Shown: positions 35,729 through 49,803 of the stretch, one piece after another
How positions within the stretch are numbered: position 1 is the first letter of the stretch
Layout: each line of letters begins with the position of its first letter
NCBI RefSeq assembly: GCF_030457605.1
Contig: NZ_JAKDUR010000002.1
Coordinates: forward strand, 62,001 to 126,000
Length of the DNA: 64,000 nucleotides
Reading direction: 5' to 3'
Source: Halomonas sp.
Lineage (GTDB): Bacteria > Pseudomonadota > Gammaproteobacteria > Pseudomonadales > Halomonadaceae
The notes under the pieces: model-generated
What the model was told of the DNA's origin: nothing
Seen by the model: only the letters and a program-made list of their open reading frames with translations
The model's database searches: none
Program-made: the position numbers and the translations under genes

Positions 35729-37093
35729 TTATGAGAGTTTCAACAACGCCAGCACGGCATCCATATCCAGCTGCTGCTCCAGGGTGTCCGCCAGGCGCTT
35801 TAGCTCGCATTCTCGGTGGGCGTCGAAGTCAACGTGCTCGGCGTGCTCAAGGCCCAGCTGCGACAGTACGGAAGCACTGATATCCGGGTACTCGAAAAGA
35901 CCGTGCAGGGCGGTGCCCAGCACCTGACCGTCATTGCTGATAGTGCCTTCTGTTGCAAAGGCTGTATCACCGGCACGAATGAAGCCAAACGGCTCTGTAG
36001 TCAACCGGCTGGTAATCGGCAGTAGCCCAAGGCCCGGCACGCGGGTCGCGGTATTTTCTGCCTCGCCGGAGTCGTCAATCCACTCGCCCAGCATCTGCTG
36101 GCCTCCGCCAATCCCCAGCACCCTGCCGCCGTAACGCAGGTGGCGCTGAATCGACGCTGCAAAGCCCTGCTGTTCAAGCCAGCGAAGATCACTGATGACG
36201 CTCTGGCTGCTCGGTAGAATGATCGCATCAACGGGCGGTATCGACCGGCCGGGGCCAACGAAGGTGACGTTAACCTGCGGATGGGCGCGCAACGGGTCAA
36301 AATCGGTATGGTTGCTGATGCGTGGCAGCGCGATGACGGCGACGCTCAGAGTCTGTTCGCGTTTGTCGCTCTGGCCTTCAACAATGCCGTCTTCAGCGTC
36401 CAACAGCAGGCCCTGAATATACGGCAGCGTGCCCATCACCGGTTTATCAGTGCGGGCTTCAAGCCAGTCGAGCCCCGGGGTCAGCAGTGCGATATCGCCG
36501 CGAAAGCGGTTGATGATAAAACCCCGCGTGCGCGCCTGTTCGGATTCGCTCAGCAATGCAAGCGTGCCCACCAGCTGGGCAAACACGCCGCCGCGGTCAA
36601 TATCGCCCACCAGCAGCACGGGGCAATCGGCGGCTTCGGCAAAGCCCATGTTGGCAATATCGCCTGCGCGCAGGTTGATTTCCGCGGGGCTGCCAGCGCC
36701 TTCGGCGATAATCACGTCGTGTCGCCGGCAAAGTGTCTGCCACGCAGCCATCACGCTGCGCTGCGCCGTGCGCTTGAAAGCATGGTAATCAAGCGCATCC
36801 ATGTAGCCGTAGGGCCGTCCGCGCAGGATGACCTGAGCGCCTCGGTCGGTTGAAGGCTTTAACAGCACCGGGTTCATGTCGCTGTGAGGTTCAACGCCGG
36901 CGGCCTGTGCCTGTAGCGCGGTGGAACGGCCGATTTCACCACCCTCTGCCGTCATGGCACTGTTCAGCGCCATGTTCTGCGGTTTGAACGGCGCCACCGA
37001 TATGCCGCGCCGCTTGAGCACGCGGCACAGCCCGGCCACCACGGTGCTCTTGCCGGCATCCGAGGTGGTACCCTGGATCATCAACGTGGCCAT
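35729..37093 (-). CDS. cobQ: Cobyric acid synthase homologue with damaged glutaminase domain
   Basis: CobQ normally amidates four side chains of adenosylcobyrinate a,c-diamide using glutamine. The N-terminal synthetase half is intact ([32 protein letters not shown]). The C-terminal class I amidotransferase half is not. The nucleophile motif reads [14 protein letters not shown], with Gly where the family has Cys (GICGGYQM). About 30 residues including the conserved GYEIHMG stretch are missing between [13 protein letters not shown] and PFGFIRAG. The His of HGLFE remains. At 454 residues it is shorter than usual, about 480-490. The frame is open throughout. It may be non-functional or ammonia-dependent. 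Confidence 0.9.
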
Positions 37094-42926: not shown

Positions 42927-43082
42927 GGAAGTTCCCTTGCTCATCGTGCTCACCCGCACGGGGTTATCGTTATGTACCGGGCGAATGGATGGCAGGGATA
43001 AAAGCAGAGGGAAAGGCGCGTGCGCCGTCACCGCCTGCCAGCGCCCACCGCGCCACGGCCTGTATGCTGCCCACTAGTGCGT

Positions 43083-43315
43083 GGGTCAGTGTGCTCAGGC
43101 CGGTCTCCGGGCTGACGAGCAAAAGGCGTTGCGCTCCTGGCGGGCTCTTGGCCTTTAGGCCGCCACGCCCTTCCCGCGCGTTTTATCCATGGGGGATAAA
43201 AGCGGCGCAGTGGCATGCGTAGCGGCTGTCTCGATCACCGTTGCGGGGGCAGCGTCGGAATGGGCACCGACTTCCCGTTTCACCGCCGCGACCGTTGCGC
43301 GGCTGGCACCTGAGA
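43083..43315 (-). promoter_or_regulatory. Cobalamin (AdoCbl) riboswitch upstream of btuB
   Basis: Read on the minus strand, the elements occur in the expected order: AGGTGCC, then GGTGAAACGGGAAGTCGGTG, CCCCCGCAACGGT, the B12 box GCCACTG (43208-43214), GGGAAGG, and the closing AGCCCGGAGACCGGCCTG. The order and wording match the cobalamin riboswitch core. It lies about 155 bases before the btuB start and should repress the import operon when cobalamin is plentiful. A possible promoter on the minus strand (TTGCGT-N17-TAGCTT) lies just upstream. Confidence 0.95.
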
Positions 43316-43379
43316 GTGCGCGTAAGCTAGCAACTTGCGCGCCGTAACGCAACGCTGCCAGAAGGGGTACATGGGGCAT

Positions 43380-43496: not shown

Positions 43497-43937
43497 TTAC
43501 CCCTTAAGCACCATCACCAGCCCGTGGCGCACCCGCCATACGCGCCGGGCAATGGCGGCCGCGTCCTGGTTGAACCAGCCGTTCATGTCGCGCAGGCGGC
43601 GCTCAAGGCGGTCCATGGGCACAATGCCGCAGCCTACCTCGTGGCCGATAATGATCAGCGGCGCGGGGGCGAAGCGCGCATCGAGGGCGACAAGCTCGGC
43701 CTGCCACTGCCGGCGCAGGGCGTCGTGGTTTGTCTCGCGCTCAAGCGCGGCCTCAAGCCAGGGCAGCACGCCGTACAGCACCGTGGGCACGCCCTGCCCT
43801 TCAAACTGCACGCGGGCGGCCCATTCGGCAAGGGTTTCCCCCGGCGCAAGCGCCTGCCAGCGGGCGGCGGGCCAGCGCTCGGCTACGGCGTCGCGCTTGC
43901 CGGCGCGGGCACCGCCGAGGAACAGCTGCACTGCCAT
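43497..43937 (-). CDS. Short, divergent CobU-like protein (second copy)
   Basis: This 146-residue homologue of adenosylcobinamide kinase/guanylyltransferase is shorter than the usual 180 or so. The P-loop is altered: LFLGGARAGKRDAV, with Arg at the Ser/Thr of GGARSGKS. The segment carrying the guanylylated His in CobU is absent. The C-terminal half is well kept (GHEVGCGIVPMDRLERRLRDMNGWFNQ, the CobU EVGxGIVP motif). GGGAGGCGACCC precedes the ATG. It overlaps cobC by 55 bases and is the last gene of the cob block. It may be a partner of, or a remnant beside, the full cobU. Confidence 0.82.
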   Translation of the reverse strand: MAVQLFLGGARAGKRDAVAERWPAARWQALAPGETLAEWAARVQFEGQGVPTVLYGVLPWLEAALERETNHDALRRQWQAELVALDARFAPAPLIIIGHEVGCGIVPMDRLERRLRDMNGWFNQDAAAIARRVWRVRHGLVMVLKG

Positions 43938-44566
43938 GGGTCGCCTCCCTGTGTATTGGGATCATAGGTGAGCTGCCAACGCCGGCCTTCGGCCTGGCGC
44001 ACGGTGGAGTCCCAGAAAGCGACGTTTTCAAAGCGCCGGCGCAGCTCGCGGATGACCCCGCCGTGGGCCACGGCCAGCACCTTGAGCGGCCGGCCGTCTG
44101 GTGCCCCAGTGCCGCTGGCCGCCTGGTGTGCTGCATAAGCCACGTCGCCAAGCCAGGCGTCCAGCCGGGCGCGCAGGTCGGCACCGTTTTCGCCGCCGGG
44201 GATGCGCTGCTCGCCGACGCTGTCGATCCAGGCGCGGTAGTCCGGGCGGTCTTTCAGCTCATCGTAGGTCTTGCCCTCGTAGTCGCCGAAGTCGATCTCG
44301 CGCAGGCGCGGCTCGAACACCGGCGTCACGCCGCTGTTTTCCACCGCGCCGCTCCACTCGAGGGTCTGGCGGCAGCGGGTCAGGTCGCTTGAGTAGATCA
44401 GCGCAAACCGCTCATCGCCAAGCGCCAGGCGCAGCCGCTCCAGGGCGGCCTCGGCCTCGGGAAACGCCAGTTCAATATCGCGCTGGCCCTGGTAGCGTCG
44501 CTCCAGGTTCCAGAACGTCATCCCGTGGCGAACTGCCACCAGCTCCACAGACACAGCAGACACCAT
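43883..44566 (-). CDS. cobC: Histidine phosphatase, probable alpha-ribazole phosphatase
   Basis: This 227-residue histidine phosphatase has the signature AVRHGMTFWNLERRYQGQ, with the catalytic RHG, and the second His in AVAHGGVIREL. In the cob cluster it most likely removes phosphate from adenosylcobalamin 5'-phosphate or alpha-ribazole phosphate. GAAGGAGGAG precedes the ATG. It overlaps cobS by 49 bases, and its last residues overlap the next gene by 55 bases. The 3' tail (NTQGGDPWQC...) looks unconstrained. Confidence 0.88.
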   Translation of the reverse strand: MVSAVSVELVAVRHGMTFWNLERRYQGQRDIELAFPEAEAALERLRLALGDERFALIYSSDLTRCRQTLEWSGAVENSGVTPVFEPRLREIDFGDYEGKTYDELKDRPDYRAWIDSVGEQRIPGGENGADLRARLDAWLGDVAYAAHQAASGTGAPDGRPLKVLAVAHGGVIRELRRRFENVAFWDSTVRQAEGRRWQLTYDPNTQGGDPWQCSCSSAVPAPASATP

Positions 44567-45306
44567 AGCTCTCCTCCTTCAATCATGGCACCGGCCAGGT
44601 CACCGGTGATGCCGCCAAACCAGCGCTTGAGCGCACGGCGTGCGACGAGAAAATAAAACCCCGCTGCGGCAAGCGCCAGCCACAGCCCGGGCCAGAACAA
44701 TGCCAGCGCAAGCGGCACGGCAAGCGCCCAGGCGGCGTCCACGGGGGTAAGCGACTGCTGCCAGGCATGCGCAAGCCCGGTGGGTTTGGCACCGGGAATC
44801 AGGATAAGCCCCGCCGCCCCCAGCAAGCGGCCAAGCGCCGGCACGGCAATCAGCCAGCCGAGCGGAGCGCCGGCGTCCACCAGCGCCCACAGCAGCACGC
44901 CCTTCCACGCCAGCAGGAAAAACAGCGAAAGCATGCCGAAGCTGCCGACGTGGGGGTCCTGCATGATGGCGAAGCGGCGCTCCAGAGGCTGGTTGCTACC
45001 CAGCGCGTCGGCCATGTCCATCAGGCCGTCCAGGTGCAGCCCGCCGGAAAGCGCGACCCACAGGCTAAGCAGCACCAGGGCTGTTAGCGGCGCAGGCGTG
45101 GCGGGAAACACCTCGGTCAGCAGGTACGCCGCCAGCGCCAGCACGCTGCCCAGCAGCGCGCCCACCAGCGGGTAGGCACGCACCGCAAAGCGGCGGGTTT
45201 CGGGCGTCCAGGGGCAGGCCAGCGGCACCGGAATGCGGGTCAAGAACTGCAGCGCCAGCACCAGCCCGAAGGCGGCATTTTTCATCGGTGAAAGCCTGTT
45301 TTTCAT
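44518..45306 (-). CDS. cobS: Adenosylcobinamide-GDP ribazoletransferase
   Basis: CobS joins adenosylcobinamide-GDP and alpha-ribazole in the membrane to make cobalamin. The protein has 262 residues from MKNRLSPMKN, preceded by AGGAGG, and about six membrane segments. Conserved parts are FLTRIPVP, the acidic motif GGLHLDGLMDMADALG and GGITGDLAGA. The start overlaps the cobU stop by ATGA. The ORF-track extension is rejected. Confidence 0.94.
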   Translation of the reverse strand: MKNRLSPMKNAAFGLVLALQFLTRIPVPLACPWTPETRRFAVRAYPLVGALLGSVLALAAYLLTEVFPATPAPLTALVLLSLWVALSGGLHLDGLMDMADALGSNQPLERRFAIMQDPHVGSFGMLSLFFLLAWKGVLLWALVDAGAPLGWLIAVPALGRLLGAAGLILIPGAKPTGLAHAWQQSLTPVDAAWALAVPLALALFWPGLWLALAAAGFYFLVARRALKRWFGGITGDLAGAMIEGGELWCLLCLWSWWQFATG

Positions 45307-45884
45307 CGACAAAGACCTCCTGCGTGATCGCTCATGCTCGCCGGTTTCCACTCGACGCCTTGACCGGCGATAACCTCCCGCACCGAATCGGCGCGGCCGG
45401 CGACCAAACGGTGGGCGCGCTGCAAAAAGGCCACGTAGCGCCACGTTTCGGCGCTTGCCTCATCGGTTGGCAGCAGCGCTTCGTTGAGGTCGTTGGACAC
45501 CAGCACCAGCGCAATAGCGCGCCGGCGCGCCGCGTCGATACACGCAGCAAGATCACAAAGCGCCTGCTCGGGCGATGGGTGCCGGGCATCATCTGCCTGC
45601 GGGTAAAGCACCTGGCTTGCCCACAGCGTCAGGCAGTCGATCAGCGCCGCGCCGCCGTTTGGCACCTGCTCAACGGGCGGCGTCAGCCACAGCGGCGCTT
45701 CAAGCGTGGCCCAGCCGGCACCCCGGGAGCGCCGGTGGCGGGCAATGCGCGCGGCCATCTCGCCATCGCTGACATTCGCCGTGGCGATGTAATACGGCGT
45801 TTGGGTGCCGGCGGCACGGCGCACCGCCGCCTCGGCCACGGCGCTCTTGCCCGAGCGCGCCCCGCCGCTAACGAAGACGACCAC
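45303..45884 (-). CDS. cobU: Adenosylcobinamide kinase/guanylyltransferase CobU
   Basis: CobU phosphorylates adenosylcobinamide and then transfers GMP. In this 193-residue copy the N-terminal half is complete: P-loop VSGGARSGKSAVAE, YIATANVSDGEMAARIARH with the guanylylated-type His, and GWATLEAP. In the C-terminal half the usual VSNEVGxGIVP motif reads VSNDLNEALLP. This may be a clade variant. The start is GTG with GAGGAGG upstream. It overlaps cobD by 17 bases and cobS by 4. Confidence 0.9.
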   Translation of the reverse strand: MVVFVSGGARSGKSAVAEAAVRRAAGTQTPYYIATANVSDGEMAARIARHRRSRGAGWATLEAPLWLTPPVEQVPNGGAALIDCLTLWASQVLYPQADDARHPSPEQALCDLAACIDAARRRAIALVLVSNDLNEALLPTDEASAETWRYVAFLQRAHRLVAGRADSVREVIAGQGVEWKPASMSDHAGGLCR

Positions 45885-47025
45885 GGCGGTCCTCCTCGCC
45901 CTTCAGGGCGTCACCGAGCCCCTTGAGCAGCCGGTCATTGGCATCAGCGTCACGCAGGGCCAGGCGCAGCCAGCGGCCGTCGAGCCCTTTGTAGCCGTGG
46001 GTATGGCGGACAAGAATGCCGCCGCACAATAGCCGCTCAAGCAGCGCCTCGGCGGTAATGCCCCGCCGGCGCAGCTCAACCCCCGGGCACAGCAGAAAAA
46101 AGCACGTCTCACCGGGGGCTACCTCAAGCCCCAGTGCCTGCAGCGCCCGGTGCATGCGCGGGCGCTCGGCGGCAAGCCAGGCCCGGGTACGCTCGGAGAA
46201 CGCCGTATCCGCCAGCAGCGGCGCGACAAGCCCGGCGGCCAGCCGGTTGACGCTCCAGGGCGGCTGGCGGCGGGCCATGGCGGCGATCAGCGCCTCACTG
46301 GCGAGCGCGTATCCCAGGCGCAGCCCGGGCAGGGTATAAAACTTGGTCATCGAGCGCAGCAGGATCAGATTAGGGTGTGCGGCAAGCCTTGTCGGCAGCG
46401 CGGCGGCGTCCGCCGGGCGGGCCGTCATGTCGATGAACGCTTCGTCCACCACCACCCGGCAGCCACAGGCGGCGGCCCGGGCCAGCAGCGCGTCCACGTC
46501 TGCCAGCGCCAGCAACCCACCGTCGGGGTTGTTGGGCCGGCAGAGAAATACTGCGTCGAGGTCTTCAAGAGAATCGGCCAGGGAGATCTCGCGCACTTCA
46601 GCACCTACGCCGGCAAGCGCTCGGGCGTACTCGTTAAAGGTGGGTGCCAGCACCCCGGCGCGCCCGCCGGCGCACAGCCCGGCGGCGAGAAAGATGGCCT
46701 CGCCGCCGCCGTTGGCAAGCAGCACCTGGCCTGGCATAACGCCGTGGTGGGCGGCAATCGCCGCGCGGGGTTCGGCGTAGTTTACGTCCGGGTAGCGGGC
46801 AAGCTCGCCCACATGGCGCGCAAGCCAGGCCGGCACCCAGCCGGGCGGGCCCAGCGGGTTGAGGTTGGCGCTGAAATCCTCAAACGGATGATCCGCCGGC
46901 AGGCCGAAGCGCTCAAGCAGCGCGCCCGCCTGCCCGCCGTGGCGCGGCCATTCGCTGGCTTGTTCGCAAGGCATAGACGTAAATGCAGACATGGACGTGG
47001 ATATAGACCTGGGTATAGACGCCAT
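45868..47025 (-). CDS. cobD: L-threonine-O-3-phosphate decarboxylase (CobD-type)
   Basis: This PLP enzyme makes (R)-1-amino-2-propanol phosphate for the nucleotide loop. It is homologous to histidinol-phosphate aminotransferase. The PLP lysine is in SMTKFYTLPGLRLGYA, the Asp/Asn in CRPNNPDGGLL and the N-terminal HGGQ occurs in PRHGGQAGALL. The start at MASIPRS shares a base with the cbiB stop (TGATG). Naming follows Salmonella cobD; Pseudomonas nomenclature calls it cobC. Confidence 0.93.
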   Translation of the reverse strand: MASIPRSISTSMSAFTSMPCEQASEWPRHGGQAGALLERFGLPADHPFEDFSANLNPLGPPGWVPAWLARHVGELARYPDVNYAEPRAAIAAHHGVMPGQVLLANGGGEAIFLAAGLCAGGRAGVLAPTFNEYARALAGVGAEVREISLADSLEDLDAVFLCRPNNPDGGLLALADVDALLARAAACGCRVVVDEAFIDMTARPADAAALPTRLAAHPNLILLRSMTKFYTLPGLRLGYALASEALIAAMARRQPPWSVNRLAAGLVAPLLADTAFSERTRAWLAAERPRMHRALQALGLEVAPGETCFFLLCPGVELRRRGITAEALLERLLCGGILVRHTHGYKGLDGRWLRLALRDADANDRLLKGLGDALKGEEDRRGRLR

Positions 47026-48002
47026 CAACCTGTACCTCCCGCCTTGATTAGCCACGCGCTGGCTATCACCAGCGCCGCCGTCAGCGCGAAAAACCGCGCC
47101 CAGCCCTGGTGCATCAAGGCAATCGCGCGATCAATATGCCCGGCGTTAAGCGTCTCTCGCGGCTCGCCAAGCGTCGCGCTGCGGGTCATCACGCCCTGAT
47201 AGCTGCTCGCCCCGCCAAGCGCCACGCCCAGCCGGTGCGCCATGGCCGCCTCGGGCCAGCCGGCGTTGGGGCTTGCGTGCCTGGGCGCATCCCGGCGGGT
47301 GCCCTGCCAGGCAGCCGTGTCGATGCCCTTCCCACTCAGGCAAAAACATAGCGCGGTGAGCCTCGCCGGCAGCCAGTTGGCGGCGTCGTCCAGTTTAGCC
47401 GCAGCGCGGCCAAAGTCTGCGTAGCGTGGGGTGCGATAGCCGATCATCGAGTCCAGCGTGTTCACCGCCTTGTAGGCCAGCGCCAGCGGCGCGCCGCCAA
47501 CAAGCGCAAACAGCAGCGGCGCGGTGATGCCGTCCGAGGTGTTTTCGGCCACGGTTTCCACCGCGCCACGGGCGATGTCGGCCTCATTAAGCGTCTGGGT
47601 ATCGCGCCCGACCACCATGCTCAGCGCCGCTCGAGCCGCCGGCAAGTCGCCTTGTTTCAGCGGCGCTGCCACCGCGCGGCCGGCATCGCCAAGCCCCTTG
47701 ATGGCAACGGCGGTAGAGATCAGCCACAGCTCGGCCACAAGCCCAAGCCAAGGGTGAATCGCCCCCAACCCACGGCACACAAGCCAGACGCCGACGAATG
47801 TGCCCAACACCGTCACCAGCACCGTTAGCAGCCCGCCCCACCGGCGCGCCCGGGCGGAGCCGTGGTTCAGCCGGGCTTCCAGCGCGCTGATCAGCCGCCC
47901 CATCAATACCACCGGGTGGGGAAAACGGCGCGGGTCGCCCACGGCCAGGTCCACCGCTATCGCGGCGGCGGTAAGCGCGATCAGGGCAACTCCCGGCATC
48001 AT
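47025..48002 (-). CDS. cbiB: Adenosylcobinamide-phosphate synthase CbiB
   Basis: This integral membrane protein of 325 residues attaches aminopropanol (phosphate) to adenosylcobyric acid. Conserved parts are AVDLAVGDPRRFPHPVVLMGRLI, ENTSDGITAPLLFALVGG and YKAVNTLDSMIGYRTPRYADFG. The start overlaps the cbiZ stop by ATGA. It rebuilds the arm that CbiZ removes. Confidence 0.95.
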   Translation of the reverse strand: MMPGVALIALTAAAIAVDLAVGDPRRFPHPVVLMGRLISALEARLNHGSARARRWGGLLTVLVTVLGTFVGVWLVCRGLGAIHPWLGLVAELWLISTAVAIKGLGDAGRAVAAPLKQGDLPAARAALSMVVGRDTQTLNEADIARGAVETVAENTSDGITAPLLFALVGGAPLALAYKAVNTLDSMIGYRTPRYADFGRAAAKLDDAANWLPARLTALCFCLSGKGIDTAAWQGTRRDAPRHASPNAGWPEAAMAHRLGVALGGASSYQGVMTRSATLGEPRETLNAGHIDRAIALMHQGWARFFALTAALVIASAWLIKAGGTG

Positions 48003-48715
48003 CGTCCGCGCTCCTCATCGCTGCCGGCCCGTAAAGACTCGCGCACCGTCCGGTACACCGTGCGGCCAATAGCACGGCCAAGCTCGGTGCCGGAGCCGGC
48101 ATAAGGCGTGGGCGCGCCGCGCTGGGTGGCGGCAATGCTTACGCAGTCGGTAGAGGTGCCGGTGGCCGGCGTACGGCTGTGGGCATCGATGACGCGTTCA
48201 TCGCGCAGCGCCGCAACCTTGGCTTCGGTTGCCGAGAGGCAGGCGTTGACCATGGCACCCGGCGTCAGTTGGGCATCGATAAACACAAAGACGTTGACAG
48301 TACCGACCACCAGCCGAGGGTCTTCGCCTTCGGCGGCAATATCCACGGCGTTGCCGCTGCCCGCGGTGGCAAGCGCCAGCACGGCGTTTTGCCGCTGGCC
48401 AAGCGGGGTGCTGTGCATGGCGGCGTATTCAAGCTTCACCGCAGTCATCATCGCCACCGCGCAGGACGAATCCACCTCGTGGCCGGCAAGCCAGCGGGCA
48501 AGGTCATCGGCCGGGGCGCGGCCGGCGTAGTCCTTGTCCACGTAGAAATTGCAGAAGTCCCGCGCGGTGCCCGGGCCGCCGCCTACCAGCGCCGAGCTGA
48601 GCGTGGCCAGCGGCGCATCGGCCCGCAGATGAATACAGCCGCGCGAGAACCGCCCGACAAGCCCGGCGCTGAAGGCCAGGCGCACGGCGCGGGCGTTATC
48701 GTCGGCGCTCGGCAT
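47999..48715 (-). CDS. cbiZ: Adenosylcobinamide amidohydrolase CbiZ
   Basis: CbiZ hydrolyses the amide bond to the aminopropanol arm of adenosylcobinamide (and of pseudocobalamin in some bacteria) to release adenosylcobyric acid. The start at MPSADDNARAV shares a base with the cobT stop and gives 238 residues. Conserved parts include LSSALVGGGPGTARDFCNFYV, AVAMMTAVKLEYA and GTVNVFVFIDAQLTPGAM, followed by SGTSTDC-like GTSTDCVSIAA. The ORF-track start runs back into cobT and is rejected. Confidence 0.92.
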   Translation of the reverse strand: MPSADDNARAVRLAFSAGLVGRFSRGCIHLRADAPLATLSSALVGGGPGTARDFCNFYVDKDYAGRAPADDLARWLAGHEVDSSCAVAMMTAVKLEYAAMHSTPLGQRQNAVLALATAGSGNAVDIAAEGEDPRLVVGTVNVFVFIDAQLTPGAMVNACLSATEAKVAALRDERVIDAHSRTPATGTSTDCVSIAATQRGAPTPYAGSGTELGRAIGRTVYRTVRESLRAGSDEERGR

Positions 48716-49803
48716 CACGAGCGGCTGGCGTCCACGCCGGCATCGGCAAAGGTGGCCATCTCGCGCAGCATGGCGCAGGCGGCGTTCAGCAGCGGAAATG
48801 CCAGCGCCGCGCCGCTGCCCTCGCCCAGGCGCATGTCCATGGTCAGTATCGGCTTGGCACGCAGGGCCTGCAGCGCCACGCCGTGGCCGGGCTCCAGCGA
48901 GCGGTGGCCAAACACCAGGTAGCCGCGCACGTCCGGGCATATCTCGCAGGCAAGCAAAGCGGCCACGGTAGCGATAAAGCCGTCCACCAGGCAGGGTTTG
49001 CCCCGGGCCGCACCGGCCAGGTAGGCCCCCGCCATGGCCCCGATTTCCAGCCCGCCCACGCTTGCCAGCACCTCGACCGGGTCGCTGGTATCCATCCAGC
49101 GGGCGTCGATGGCGCGCTCGATCACGCTGATCTTGTGGGTCAGCTTCACGCTGTTGATGCCGGTGCCGGTGCCCACCACCCCGGACACCGGGTGGCCCGT
49201 CAGCACGGCAAGCATGGCGCTTGCCGCCGTGGTGTTGGCGATGCCCATCTCACCCACGATCAAGCAGCGACAGCCGGCATCAAAGGCGCGATTGGCGGCC
49301 TGAGCGCCGGCGTCCAGAGCCGCTACGGCGTCTTCACGGCCCATGGCCGGCTCGGTGAGCATGTTGCCGGTGCCCCGGCGTATTCTGGCGTTCACCACCG
49401 GGTTGTCGGCGCTGCCGGTGTCGGGCAGATCATTGGCCACGCCCACGTCGACCACCTCAAGCCGCGCAGCAATACAGCGGGCAAAAGCGTTGATCGCCGC
49501 ACCGCCGGCAGCAAAGTTGGCGACCATCTGCGCGGTAACTTCCTGCCCGAAAGCCGACACGCCTTCAACCGCCACGCCGTGGTCGGCGGCAAACACAATG
49601 CACGCCGGCGGCATCACGTCGGGTTTGGCCTGGCCGGTGATTGCGCTGAGCTGCACGGCAAGTGCCTCCAGGTCCCCGAGGCTGCCCGGCGGTTTGGTCA
49701 GCGTATCCAGGTAGGCGCGGGTGGCGTCTCCGGCAGCGCGGTCAACGGGACGAACGCGCTCCGCCAGCGCCTTGAGCACGGGCGCATCAGATAAAGGGGG
49801 CAT
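48715..49803 (-). CDS. cobT: Nicotinate-nucleotide-dimethylbenzimidazole phosphoribosyltransferase
   Basis: CobT activates the lower-ligand base as alpha-ribazole phosphate. It has 362 residues from MPPLSDAPVL. Conserved motifs are TKPPGSLGDLE, IVFAADHGVAVEGVSAFGQEVT, GEMGIANTTAASAM, GTGTGIN and the catalytic-Glu region near the C-terminus. It is the first gene of the eight-gene cob block. The upstream 200 bases, shared with the divergent sulfite oxidase gene, contain no B12 box. Confidence 0.96.
   Translation of the reverse strand: MPPLSDAPVLKALAERVRPVDRAAGDATRAYLDTLTKPPGSLGDLEALAVQLSAITGQAKPDVMPPACIVFAADHGVAVEGVSAFGQEVTAQMVANFAAGGAAINAFARCIAARLEVVDVGVANDLPDTGSADNPVVNARIRRGTGNMLTEPAMGREDAVAALDAGAQAANRAFDAGCRCLIVGEMGIANTTAASAMLAVLTGHPVSGVVGTGTGINSVKLTHKISVIERAIDARWMDTSDPVEVLASVGGLEIGAMAGAYLAGAARGKPCLVDGFIATVAALLACEICPDVRGYLVFGHRSLEPGHGVALQALRAKPILTMDMRLGEGSGAALAFPLLNAACAMLREMATFADAGVDASRS

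What the first reader, a model, noticed from the sequence alone, without database searches (positions are those of the whole stretch)
43497..45884. Two CobU homologues with opposite halves degenerated
Seen in sequence: the full-length copy (45303-45884) keeps the P-loop GGARSGKS and the guanylylation-type His segment, but its C-terminal motif is VSNDLNEALLP instead of VSNEVGxGIVP. The short copy (43497-43937) has a broken P-loop (GGARAGKR) and no guanylylation segment, but a well-kept EVGCGIVP half. Both sit in one tightly overlapped operon. CobU is a homotrimer with active sites between subunits, so a hetero-oligomer sharing two half-functional proteins is conceivable. Alternatives: the full copy belongs to a natural clade and the short one is a decaying duplicate or has a new role.
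Basis: partly seen in the sequence, partly recalled or inferred. Interest (0 to 1): 0.75.

Follow-up and report, generated by a model that had tools for sequence, protein, structure and literature searches.

The report
Vitamin B12 enzyme split in two
In Halomonas-type bacteria the one-protein vitamin-B12 assembly enzyme CobU is replaced by two always-paired proteins, each of which has kept exactly the essential residues that the other has lost, so the two very probably work only together as one enzyme.

Summary
The two CobU homologues are not a gene plus a decaying copy. In 275 Halomonadaceae genomes, 168 carry the divergent long CobU together with the short one. Another 31, in other genera, carry a single canonical CobU. 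None has both types, and the one apparent lone long copy lies at a contig end. The long and the short proteins each form one fully supported clade. Of 23 positions invariant in 42 canonical CobUs, 6 are kept by both proteins, 10 only by the long (P-loop, His46 loop, Cys81), 7 only by the short (Glu135, Gly137, Gly139, Arg148, Asp152, Gly155, Gln159), and none is lost from both. Gene order and the 46/49-nt cobC/short overlap are nearly fixed. Where an insert has separated the genes, both persist. Both are predicted to be well-folded CobU proteins. Best explanation: a hetero-oligomeric CobU in which the long subunit binds nucleotide and carries GMP, while the short subunit supplies the missing C-terminal half of the active site. 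Physical association and activity are not shown. No short-type gene was found outside the family.

The parts
45303..45884 (-). long CobU paralogue (CobU-L), proposed nucleotide-binding/guanylylated subunit
   Evidence: PF02283 124.5 bits; AF2 pLDDT 91.1, closest folds are solved CobU chains
45843..45866 (-). P-loop GGARSGKS of CobU-L (K13, S14 = Salmonella K12, S13)
   Evidence: G6, G7, R9, G11, K12, S13 kept in 41/41 long homologues, S10 in 40/41
45735..45737 (-). His50 of CobU-L = Salmonella His46, the guanylylation site
   Evidence: 41/41 in long, column absent in all 41 short
45468..45497 (-). remodelled motif SNDLNEALLP of CobU-L in place of SNEVGxGIVP
   Evidence: D, N and E at the positions of E135, G137 and 138 in 41/41 long
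43497..43937 (-). short CobU paralogue (CobU-S), proposed trans-acting partner subunit; conserved start may be 43931
   Evidence: PF02283 55.4 bits; AF2 pLDDT 93.2, pTM 0.88, closest folds are solved CobU chains
43893..43916 (-). altered P-loop GGARAGKR of CobU-S, inside the overlap with cobC
   Evidence: S13 replaced in 41/41 (Arg in 38), R9 kept in 5/41, K12 changed to Arg in 5/41; short frame more conserved than the cobC frame in the overlap
43617..43640 (-). kept motif EVGCGIVP of CobU-S
   Evidence: E135 39/41, G137, G139, P142 41/41 in short
43566..43601 (-). helix of CobU-S carrying R113, D117, G120, Q124 (= R148, D152, G155, Q159)
   Evidence: 41/41 in short; kept in 3, 2, 0 and 0 of 41 long
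43883..44566 (-). cobC-type phosphatase, overlaps the start of CobU-S
   Evidence: PF00300; TIGR03162 107 bits, below its cut-off; overlap of 46 or 49 nt in 40/41 loci
44518..45303 (-). cobS, between the two CobU genes
   Evidence: PF02654; TIGR00317 above cut-off
45868..47055 (-). cobD (L-threonine-O-3-phosphate decarboxylase)
   Evidence: TIGR01140 above cut-off
47025..48002 (-). cbiB (AdoCbi-P synthase)
   Evidence: TIGR00380 above cut-off
48715..49800 (-). cobT, first gene of the conserved order
   Evidence: TIGR03160 above cut-off; order

Best explanation
The pair is a split, hetero-oligomeric CobU. An ancestral homo-oligomeric CobU gene duplicated in one Halomonadaceae lineage, and the copies lost complementary parts. 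The long subunit binds NTP through its P-loop, keeps Cys81 and the acidic Asp80, and carries GMP on His50 (Salmonella His46). Its own C-terminal half of the site (Glu135, Gly137, Gly139, Arg148, Asp152, Gly155, Gln159) has been replaced. The short subunit has no working nucleotide site of its own: S13 is replaced and the His46 loop is deleted. It supplies the missing C-terminal residues in trans to a neighbouring long subunit. Working sites would therefore form only at long-short interfaces, and the complex performs the CobU reactions (AdoCbi to AdoCbi-P to AdoCbi-GDP) ahead of CobS. The plan resembles F1-ATPase alpha/beta, where a non-catalytic RecA-fold subunit completes the site of a catalytic one (analogy from general knowledge). 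Shown: co-occurrence, complementary conservation, single origin of each copy, predicted fold, fixed operon. Inferred: physical complex, composite site, need for both proteins, which reactions are kept.
For: Co-occurrence: 168 of 275 family genomes have the pair and 31 have one canonical CobU; 10 genera have only pairs and 9 only single CobU, with none mixed. All 40 fetched pair loci hold both genes. In an overlapping sample of 80 named loci, pattern and profile searches found both in 78. In the other two, an inserted island or phage-like sequence separates them, and both genes are still present elsewhere in the genome. Reciprocity: of 23 columns invariant in 42 canonical CobUs, 6 are kept by both, 10 by long only, 7 by short only, 0 by neither. 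Zero overlap of the losses (7 and 10 of 23) has a hypergeometric probability of about 0.007, worked by hand, and the losses fall in two blocks. Selection: median NG86 dN/dS is 0.31 for long and 0.40 for short, against 0.27-0.35 for four operon neighbours. Single origin: both clades 100/100; long plus short as one clade not rejected (p-AU 0.778). Fold. Operon: order cobT-(cbiZ)-cbiB-cobD-long-cobS-cobC-short in nearly all 40 loci; 46/49-nt overlap in 40/41.
Against: No direct evidence of physical association, and multimers could not be modelled. The placement of the seven C-terminal residues at the subunit interface of canonical CobU was not checked against coordinates; the structure papers are not in the library. 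Genes of one operon are inherited together, so co-occurrence alone is not proof of joint action. The altered motifs of the long protein are invariant, so it could have acquired a self-sufficient site. The mirror-tree correlation of long with short (0.838) is no higher than with CobS (0.888). E135 is Asp in 2 of 41 shorts.
Confidence: 0.66

Rival explanations
1. The long protein alone is the working enzyme, perhaps guanylyltransferase only, with its remodelled SNDxNE motif replacing the canonical one. The short protein has a separate conserved role, such as allosteric regulator, scaffold for the nucleotide-loop assembly enzymes, or corrinoid carrier.
For: The long protein keeps all known nucleotide and guanylylation residues. 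Its replacement motif is invariant, as if selected for. AdoCbi kinase is dispensable where CbiZ is present, and the window's operon has cbiZ.
Against: The short keeps exactly the residues the long has lost, and none is lost from both, which a separate role would not require. CbiZ is in only 48 of 275 family genomes, 4 of them canonical, so most pair genomes lack it.
Confidence: 0.25
2. Division of labour: the two proteins each perform a different one of the two CobU reactions on their own.
For: CobU is bifunctional, and archaea are known to use a separate guanylyltransferase, CobY (PMC4626045).
Against: The short has no intact Walker A (S13 replaced in 41/41, K12 also changed in 5/41) and no His46 loop, so it should support neither reaction alone.
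Confidence: 0.05
3. The short gene is a decaying duplicate of the long gene.
For: It is shorter, lacks the His46 segment and evolves somewhat faster than its neighbours.
Against: It is present in every genome of the lineage whose contig allows a check, has many columns invariant over 38-41 sequences, is predicted as a compact fold, and its reading frame is open throughout.
Confidence: 0.02

Closest known systems
CobU/CobP, bifunctional AdoCbi kinase / AdoCbi-P guanylyltransferase (PF02283; PDB 1cbu, 1c9k, 7tm8, 8yep, 8ykc, 9vio)
   Same: Both proteins are homologues with the CobU fold, and together they keep all 23 residues invariant in canonical CobU. Operon partners are those of the CobU pathway.
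   Different: Two proteins instead of one, each lacking part of the invariant set. The short lacks about 28 residues including the guanylylation His. Both score far below the NCBIfam equivalog cut-off (111.9 and 55.1 against 161).
F1-ATPase alpha/beta (RecA-fold hetero-oligomer)
   Same: Same general plan as proposed: a subunit with a non-catalytic nucleotide site completes the site of a catalytic one. RecA-type proteins, including an F1 alpha subunit, are the next structural hits after CobU for the long protein. The F1 mechanism itself is general knowledge.
   Different: No sequence kinship beyond the fold, different chemistry, and the hetero-oligomer here is not shown.
CobY, archaeal GTP:AdoCbi-P guanylyltransferase (PMC4626045)
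   Same: Also departs from the one-protein CobU arrangement for the same step.
   Different: Guanylyltransferase that lacks kinase activity, non-homologous to CobU (PMC7242693); not a pair of CobU paralogues.

Membership tests
CobU (PF02283 / NF004469) | significant match to the family profile | tested here: met
   Pfam 124.5 and 55.4 bits against cut-off 27
CobU (PF02283 / NF004469) | score over the NCBIfam equivalog cut-off (161 bits) | tested here: not met
   long 111.9, short 55.1 bits
CobU (PF02283 / NF004469) | Walker A GGxRSGKS in the same chain as the C-terminal E-x-G-x-G-(I/V)-V-P motif | tested here: not met
   long has only the first, short only the second
CobU (PF02283 / NF004469) | guanylylation His46 with its loop | tested here: met
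   met in long 41/41; absent in short 41/41
CobU (PF02283 / NF004469) | CobU fold | tested here: met
   AF2 models of both; solved CobU chains are the top Foldseek hits
CobU (PF02283 / NF004469) | AdoCbi kinase and AdoCbi-P guanylyltransferase activity | not testable with these tools
   biochemistry needed
CobU (PF02283 / NF004469) | homotrimer | not testable with these tools
   oligomeric state not predictable here; the proposal is a hetero-oligomer
F1-like catalytic/non-catalytic RecA-fold hetero-oligomer (mechanistic likeness only) | partner subunit with an altered P-loop that completes the site in trans | tested here: inconclusive
   altered P-loop shown; action in trans not tested

The most novel reading that the evidence does not exclude
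An obligate hetero-oligomeric CobU in which neither protein is active alone and every working site forms at a long-short interface, fixed in a whole lineage of Halomonadaceae after a single duplication and complementary loss.
Probability: 0.55. Interest if true: 0.7.

Novelty: new variant of a known kind. Interest (0 to 1): 0.62.

Why it matters
It would be a clean natural case of one enzyme turned into an obligate two-subunit enzyme by complementary loss, with the canonical one-gene state still present in other genera of the family for comparison. The partition divides CobU's invariant residues into two groups, which is a prediction about which residues act within a subunit and which act across the interface, a point on which the mechanism of this bifunctional enzyme can be tested. 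It also warns that genome annotation can mislabel or miss CobU in these organisms: both proteins fall below the NCBIfam equivalog cut-off. No paper in the held library describes it, though subscription papers were not searched.

Tried and rejected
1) Decaying duplicate: rejected by universal co-occurrence and conservation. 2) Link to CbiZ (kinase step dispensable): CbiZ is in only 48 of 275 genomes, including canonical ones, so it does not explain the pair. 3) Occurrence outside the family: profile searches of 369 class, 392 order and 399 phylum genomes (overlapping samples) found no short-type gene outside Halomonadaceae; short-type matches have E of 3e-52 or better, all others 1e-19 or worse and fit canonical CobU. 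4) Mirror-tree correlation: not informative, since all operon genes correlate. 5) Two apparent losses of the long gene (L138, L146) proved to be insertions, with both genes still in the genome; the pattern search was too tight and was replaced. 6) A possible lone long gene in G150 lies 784 bases from the contig end, where the short gene would be cut off. 7) Literature on CobU residue roles and on the newer structures: not held. 9) Residue coevolution across subunits: not attempted, too few canonical sequences at hand.

Full report
WHAT IS THERE. The window lies on contig C73 of a Halomonadaceae genome. The nearest named match to its short gene is Vreelandella jeotgali. On the - strand runs a late-cobalamin operon: cobT, cbiZ, cbiB, cobD, long cobU (45303-45884), cobS, cobC-type phosphatase, short cobU (43497-43937). 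Downstream are a cobalamin riboswitch (43081-43328) and genes matching btuB, btuF, btuC and btuD (one search gives their Pfam families).

THE PAIR IS THE RULE IN ONE LINEAGE. PF02283 was searched in 275 genomes of the family. Of the 200 with a match, 168 have the divergent long CobU (E about 1e-30 to 1e-44) plus a second match. Another 31 have a single canonical CobU (E 1e-49 to 1e-60). One (G150) has a lone long CobU, 784 bases from the end of its contig, where the short gene would fall off. By genus code, 10 genera have only pairs and 9 only single CobU; none is mixed. Forty pair loci fetched from 10 genera all hold both genes. In a second, overlapping sample of 80 named loci (Vreelandella, Halomonas, Billgrantia, Aidingimonas, Litchfieldella, Onishia, Halovibrio), 78 have both genes nearby. 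The other two (L138, L146) carry an insertion in front of cobS: a phage-tail-like ORF in one and an HsdR-like ORF in the other, naming by my reading. A search of those genomes shows both CobU genes are still present, about 10 kb apart on one contig in one case and on separate contigs in the other. Both genes therefore outlive the loss of operon linkage.

EXACT RECIPROCITY. In an alignment of 42 canonical CobUs (family, order, class and Salmonella) with 42 long and 41 short proteins, 23 columns are invariant in the canonical set. Both paralogues keep G6, G7, G11, W54 and G174, and K12 with exceptions in the short (K12 is Arg in 5/41). The long alone keeps R9, S10, S13, T31, D36, R42, H46, R50, E58 and C81. 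The short alone keeps E135, G137, G139, R148, D152, G155 and Q159. None is lost from both. With 7 losses in one and 10 in the other among 23, zero overlap has a probability of about 0.007 if losses were independent (hypergeometric, worked by hand), and the losses form two contiguous blocks. A broader count of columns at least 93% conserved gives 16 long-only and 0 short-only in the N half, and 5 and 7 in the C half (Fisher p = 0.0007). The altered positions are not random: the long has invariant S-N-D-x-N-E, and 38/41 shorts have Arg at S13.

SELECTION AND HISTORY. Median pairwise dN/dS (NG86, many pairs near saturation, so rough) is 0.31 for long and 0.40 for short; cobS, cobC, cbiB and cobD lie at 0.27-0.35. 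The long and the short each form one clade with 100/100 support; both stand on long branches. Holding long and short together as one clade is not rejected (p-AU 0.778), which fits one duplication, with the caveat of long-branch attraction. Gene order is cobT-(cbiZ)-cbiB-cobD-long-cobS-cobC-short in the 40 fetched loci, except that one (L049) shows cobS and cobC swapped and one (L068) gave no cobD match. Canonical Halomonadaceae have a different and far more divergent cob cluster, so the whole operon of the pair lineage may have a separate history. The short start overlaps the cobC stop by 49 nt in 33 loci and 46 nt in 7. The overlap codes for the short's P-loop segment, and the short's frame is the better conserved of the two there (0.88 against 0.68), so the segment is not kept merely for cobC.

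STRUCTURE. AlphaFold2 predicts both as confident single domains (short pLDDT 93.2, pTM 0.88; long 91.1, 0.87). Top Foldseek hits for both are solved CobU chains, followed by RecA-fold oligomers such as P4 and KaiC, and for the long also F1 alpha. R148, D152, G155 and Q159 lie in the long helix after the E-x-G-x-G motif (secondary structure), spaced as on one face. That helix face is kept only in the short.

HOW IT PROBABLY WORKS. The long subunit binds nucleotide and carries GMP on His50. The short subunit contributes the C-terminal residues to the long's site. In a ring, working sites would form only at long-short junctions. The role of Arg at S13 is open. Eight near-complete pair genomes and the window's genome each have one GHMP kinase-type match, probably IspE (inference), so a PduX/BluE-type threonine kinase was not seen; I did not identify the hits further.

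DISTRIBUTION. The short-type profile finds nothing short-like outside the family in overlapping samples of 369 class, 392 order and 399 phylum genomes; short-type matches have E of 3e-52 or better, others 1e-19 or worse. CbiZ occurs in 48 of 275 family genomes and does not track the pair.

VERDICT. Observation confirmed. The joint-enzyme reading is the best supported, the decaying-duplicate reading is refuted, and the physical complex is inferred. It is a new variant of a known enzyme.

Noticed in passing
43081-43328 (-): Cobalamin riboswitch (RF00174, 84.4 bits) between the short cobU and btuB, so it seems to control btuB and the genes behind it rather than the cob operon upstream.
   Followed up: partly
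47999-48706 (-): cbiZ (adenosylcobinamide amidohydrolase) sits in the operon but is optional: present in 48 of 275 family genomes, between cobT and cbiB in the pair loci that have it.
   Followed up: partly
L138 1-2700 and L146 1-2700: Billgrantia campisalis and Halomonas faecis carry insertions (phage-tail-like and HsdR-like ORFs) between long cobU and cobS; both cobU genes survive elsewhere in the genome.
   Followed up: yes
L073-L087: Halomonadaceae genera with a single canonical CobU have a cob cluster of different order and much lower similarity for cobT, cobS and cbiB as well, which hints at replacement of the whole cluster in one of the two lineages.
   Followed up: no
L101: In Halomonas sulfidaeris ATCC BAA-803 the long cobU, cobS, cobC, btuF and btuC all align in several pieces or with a cut start, as if the assembly has many indels there or the operon is decaying.
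   Followed up: no
35729-37093 (-): CobB/CbiA-type glutamine amidotransferase (PF07685 over 119 of 196 positions, PF01656); the complete relative G009, nearest to the window in the CobU trees, has no such gene although it has the CobU pair.
   Followed up: no
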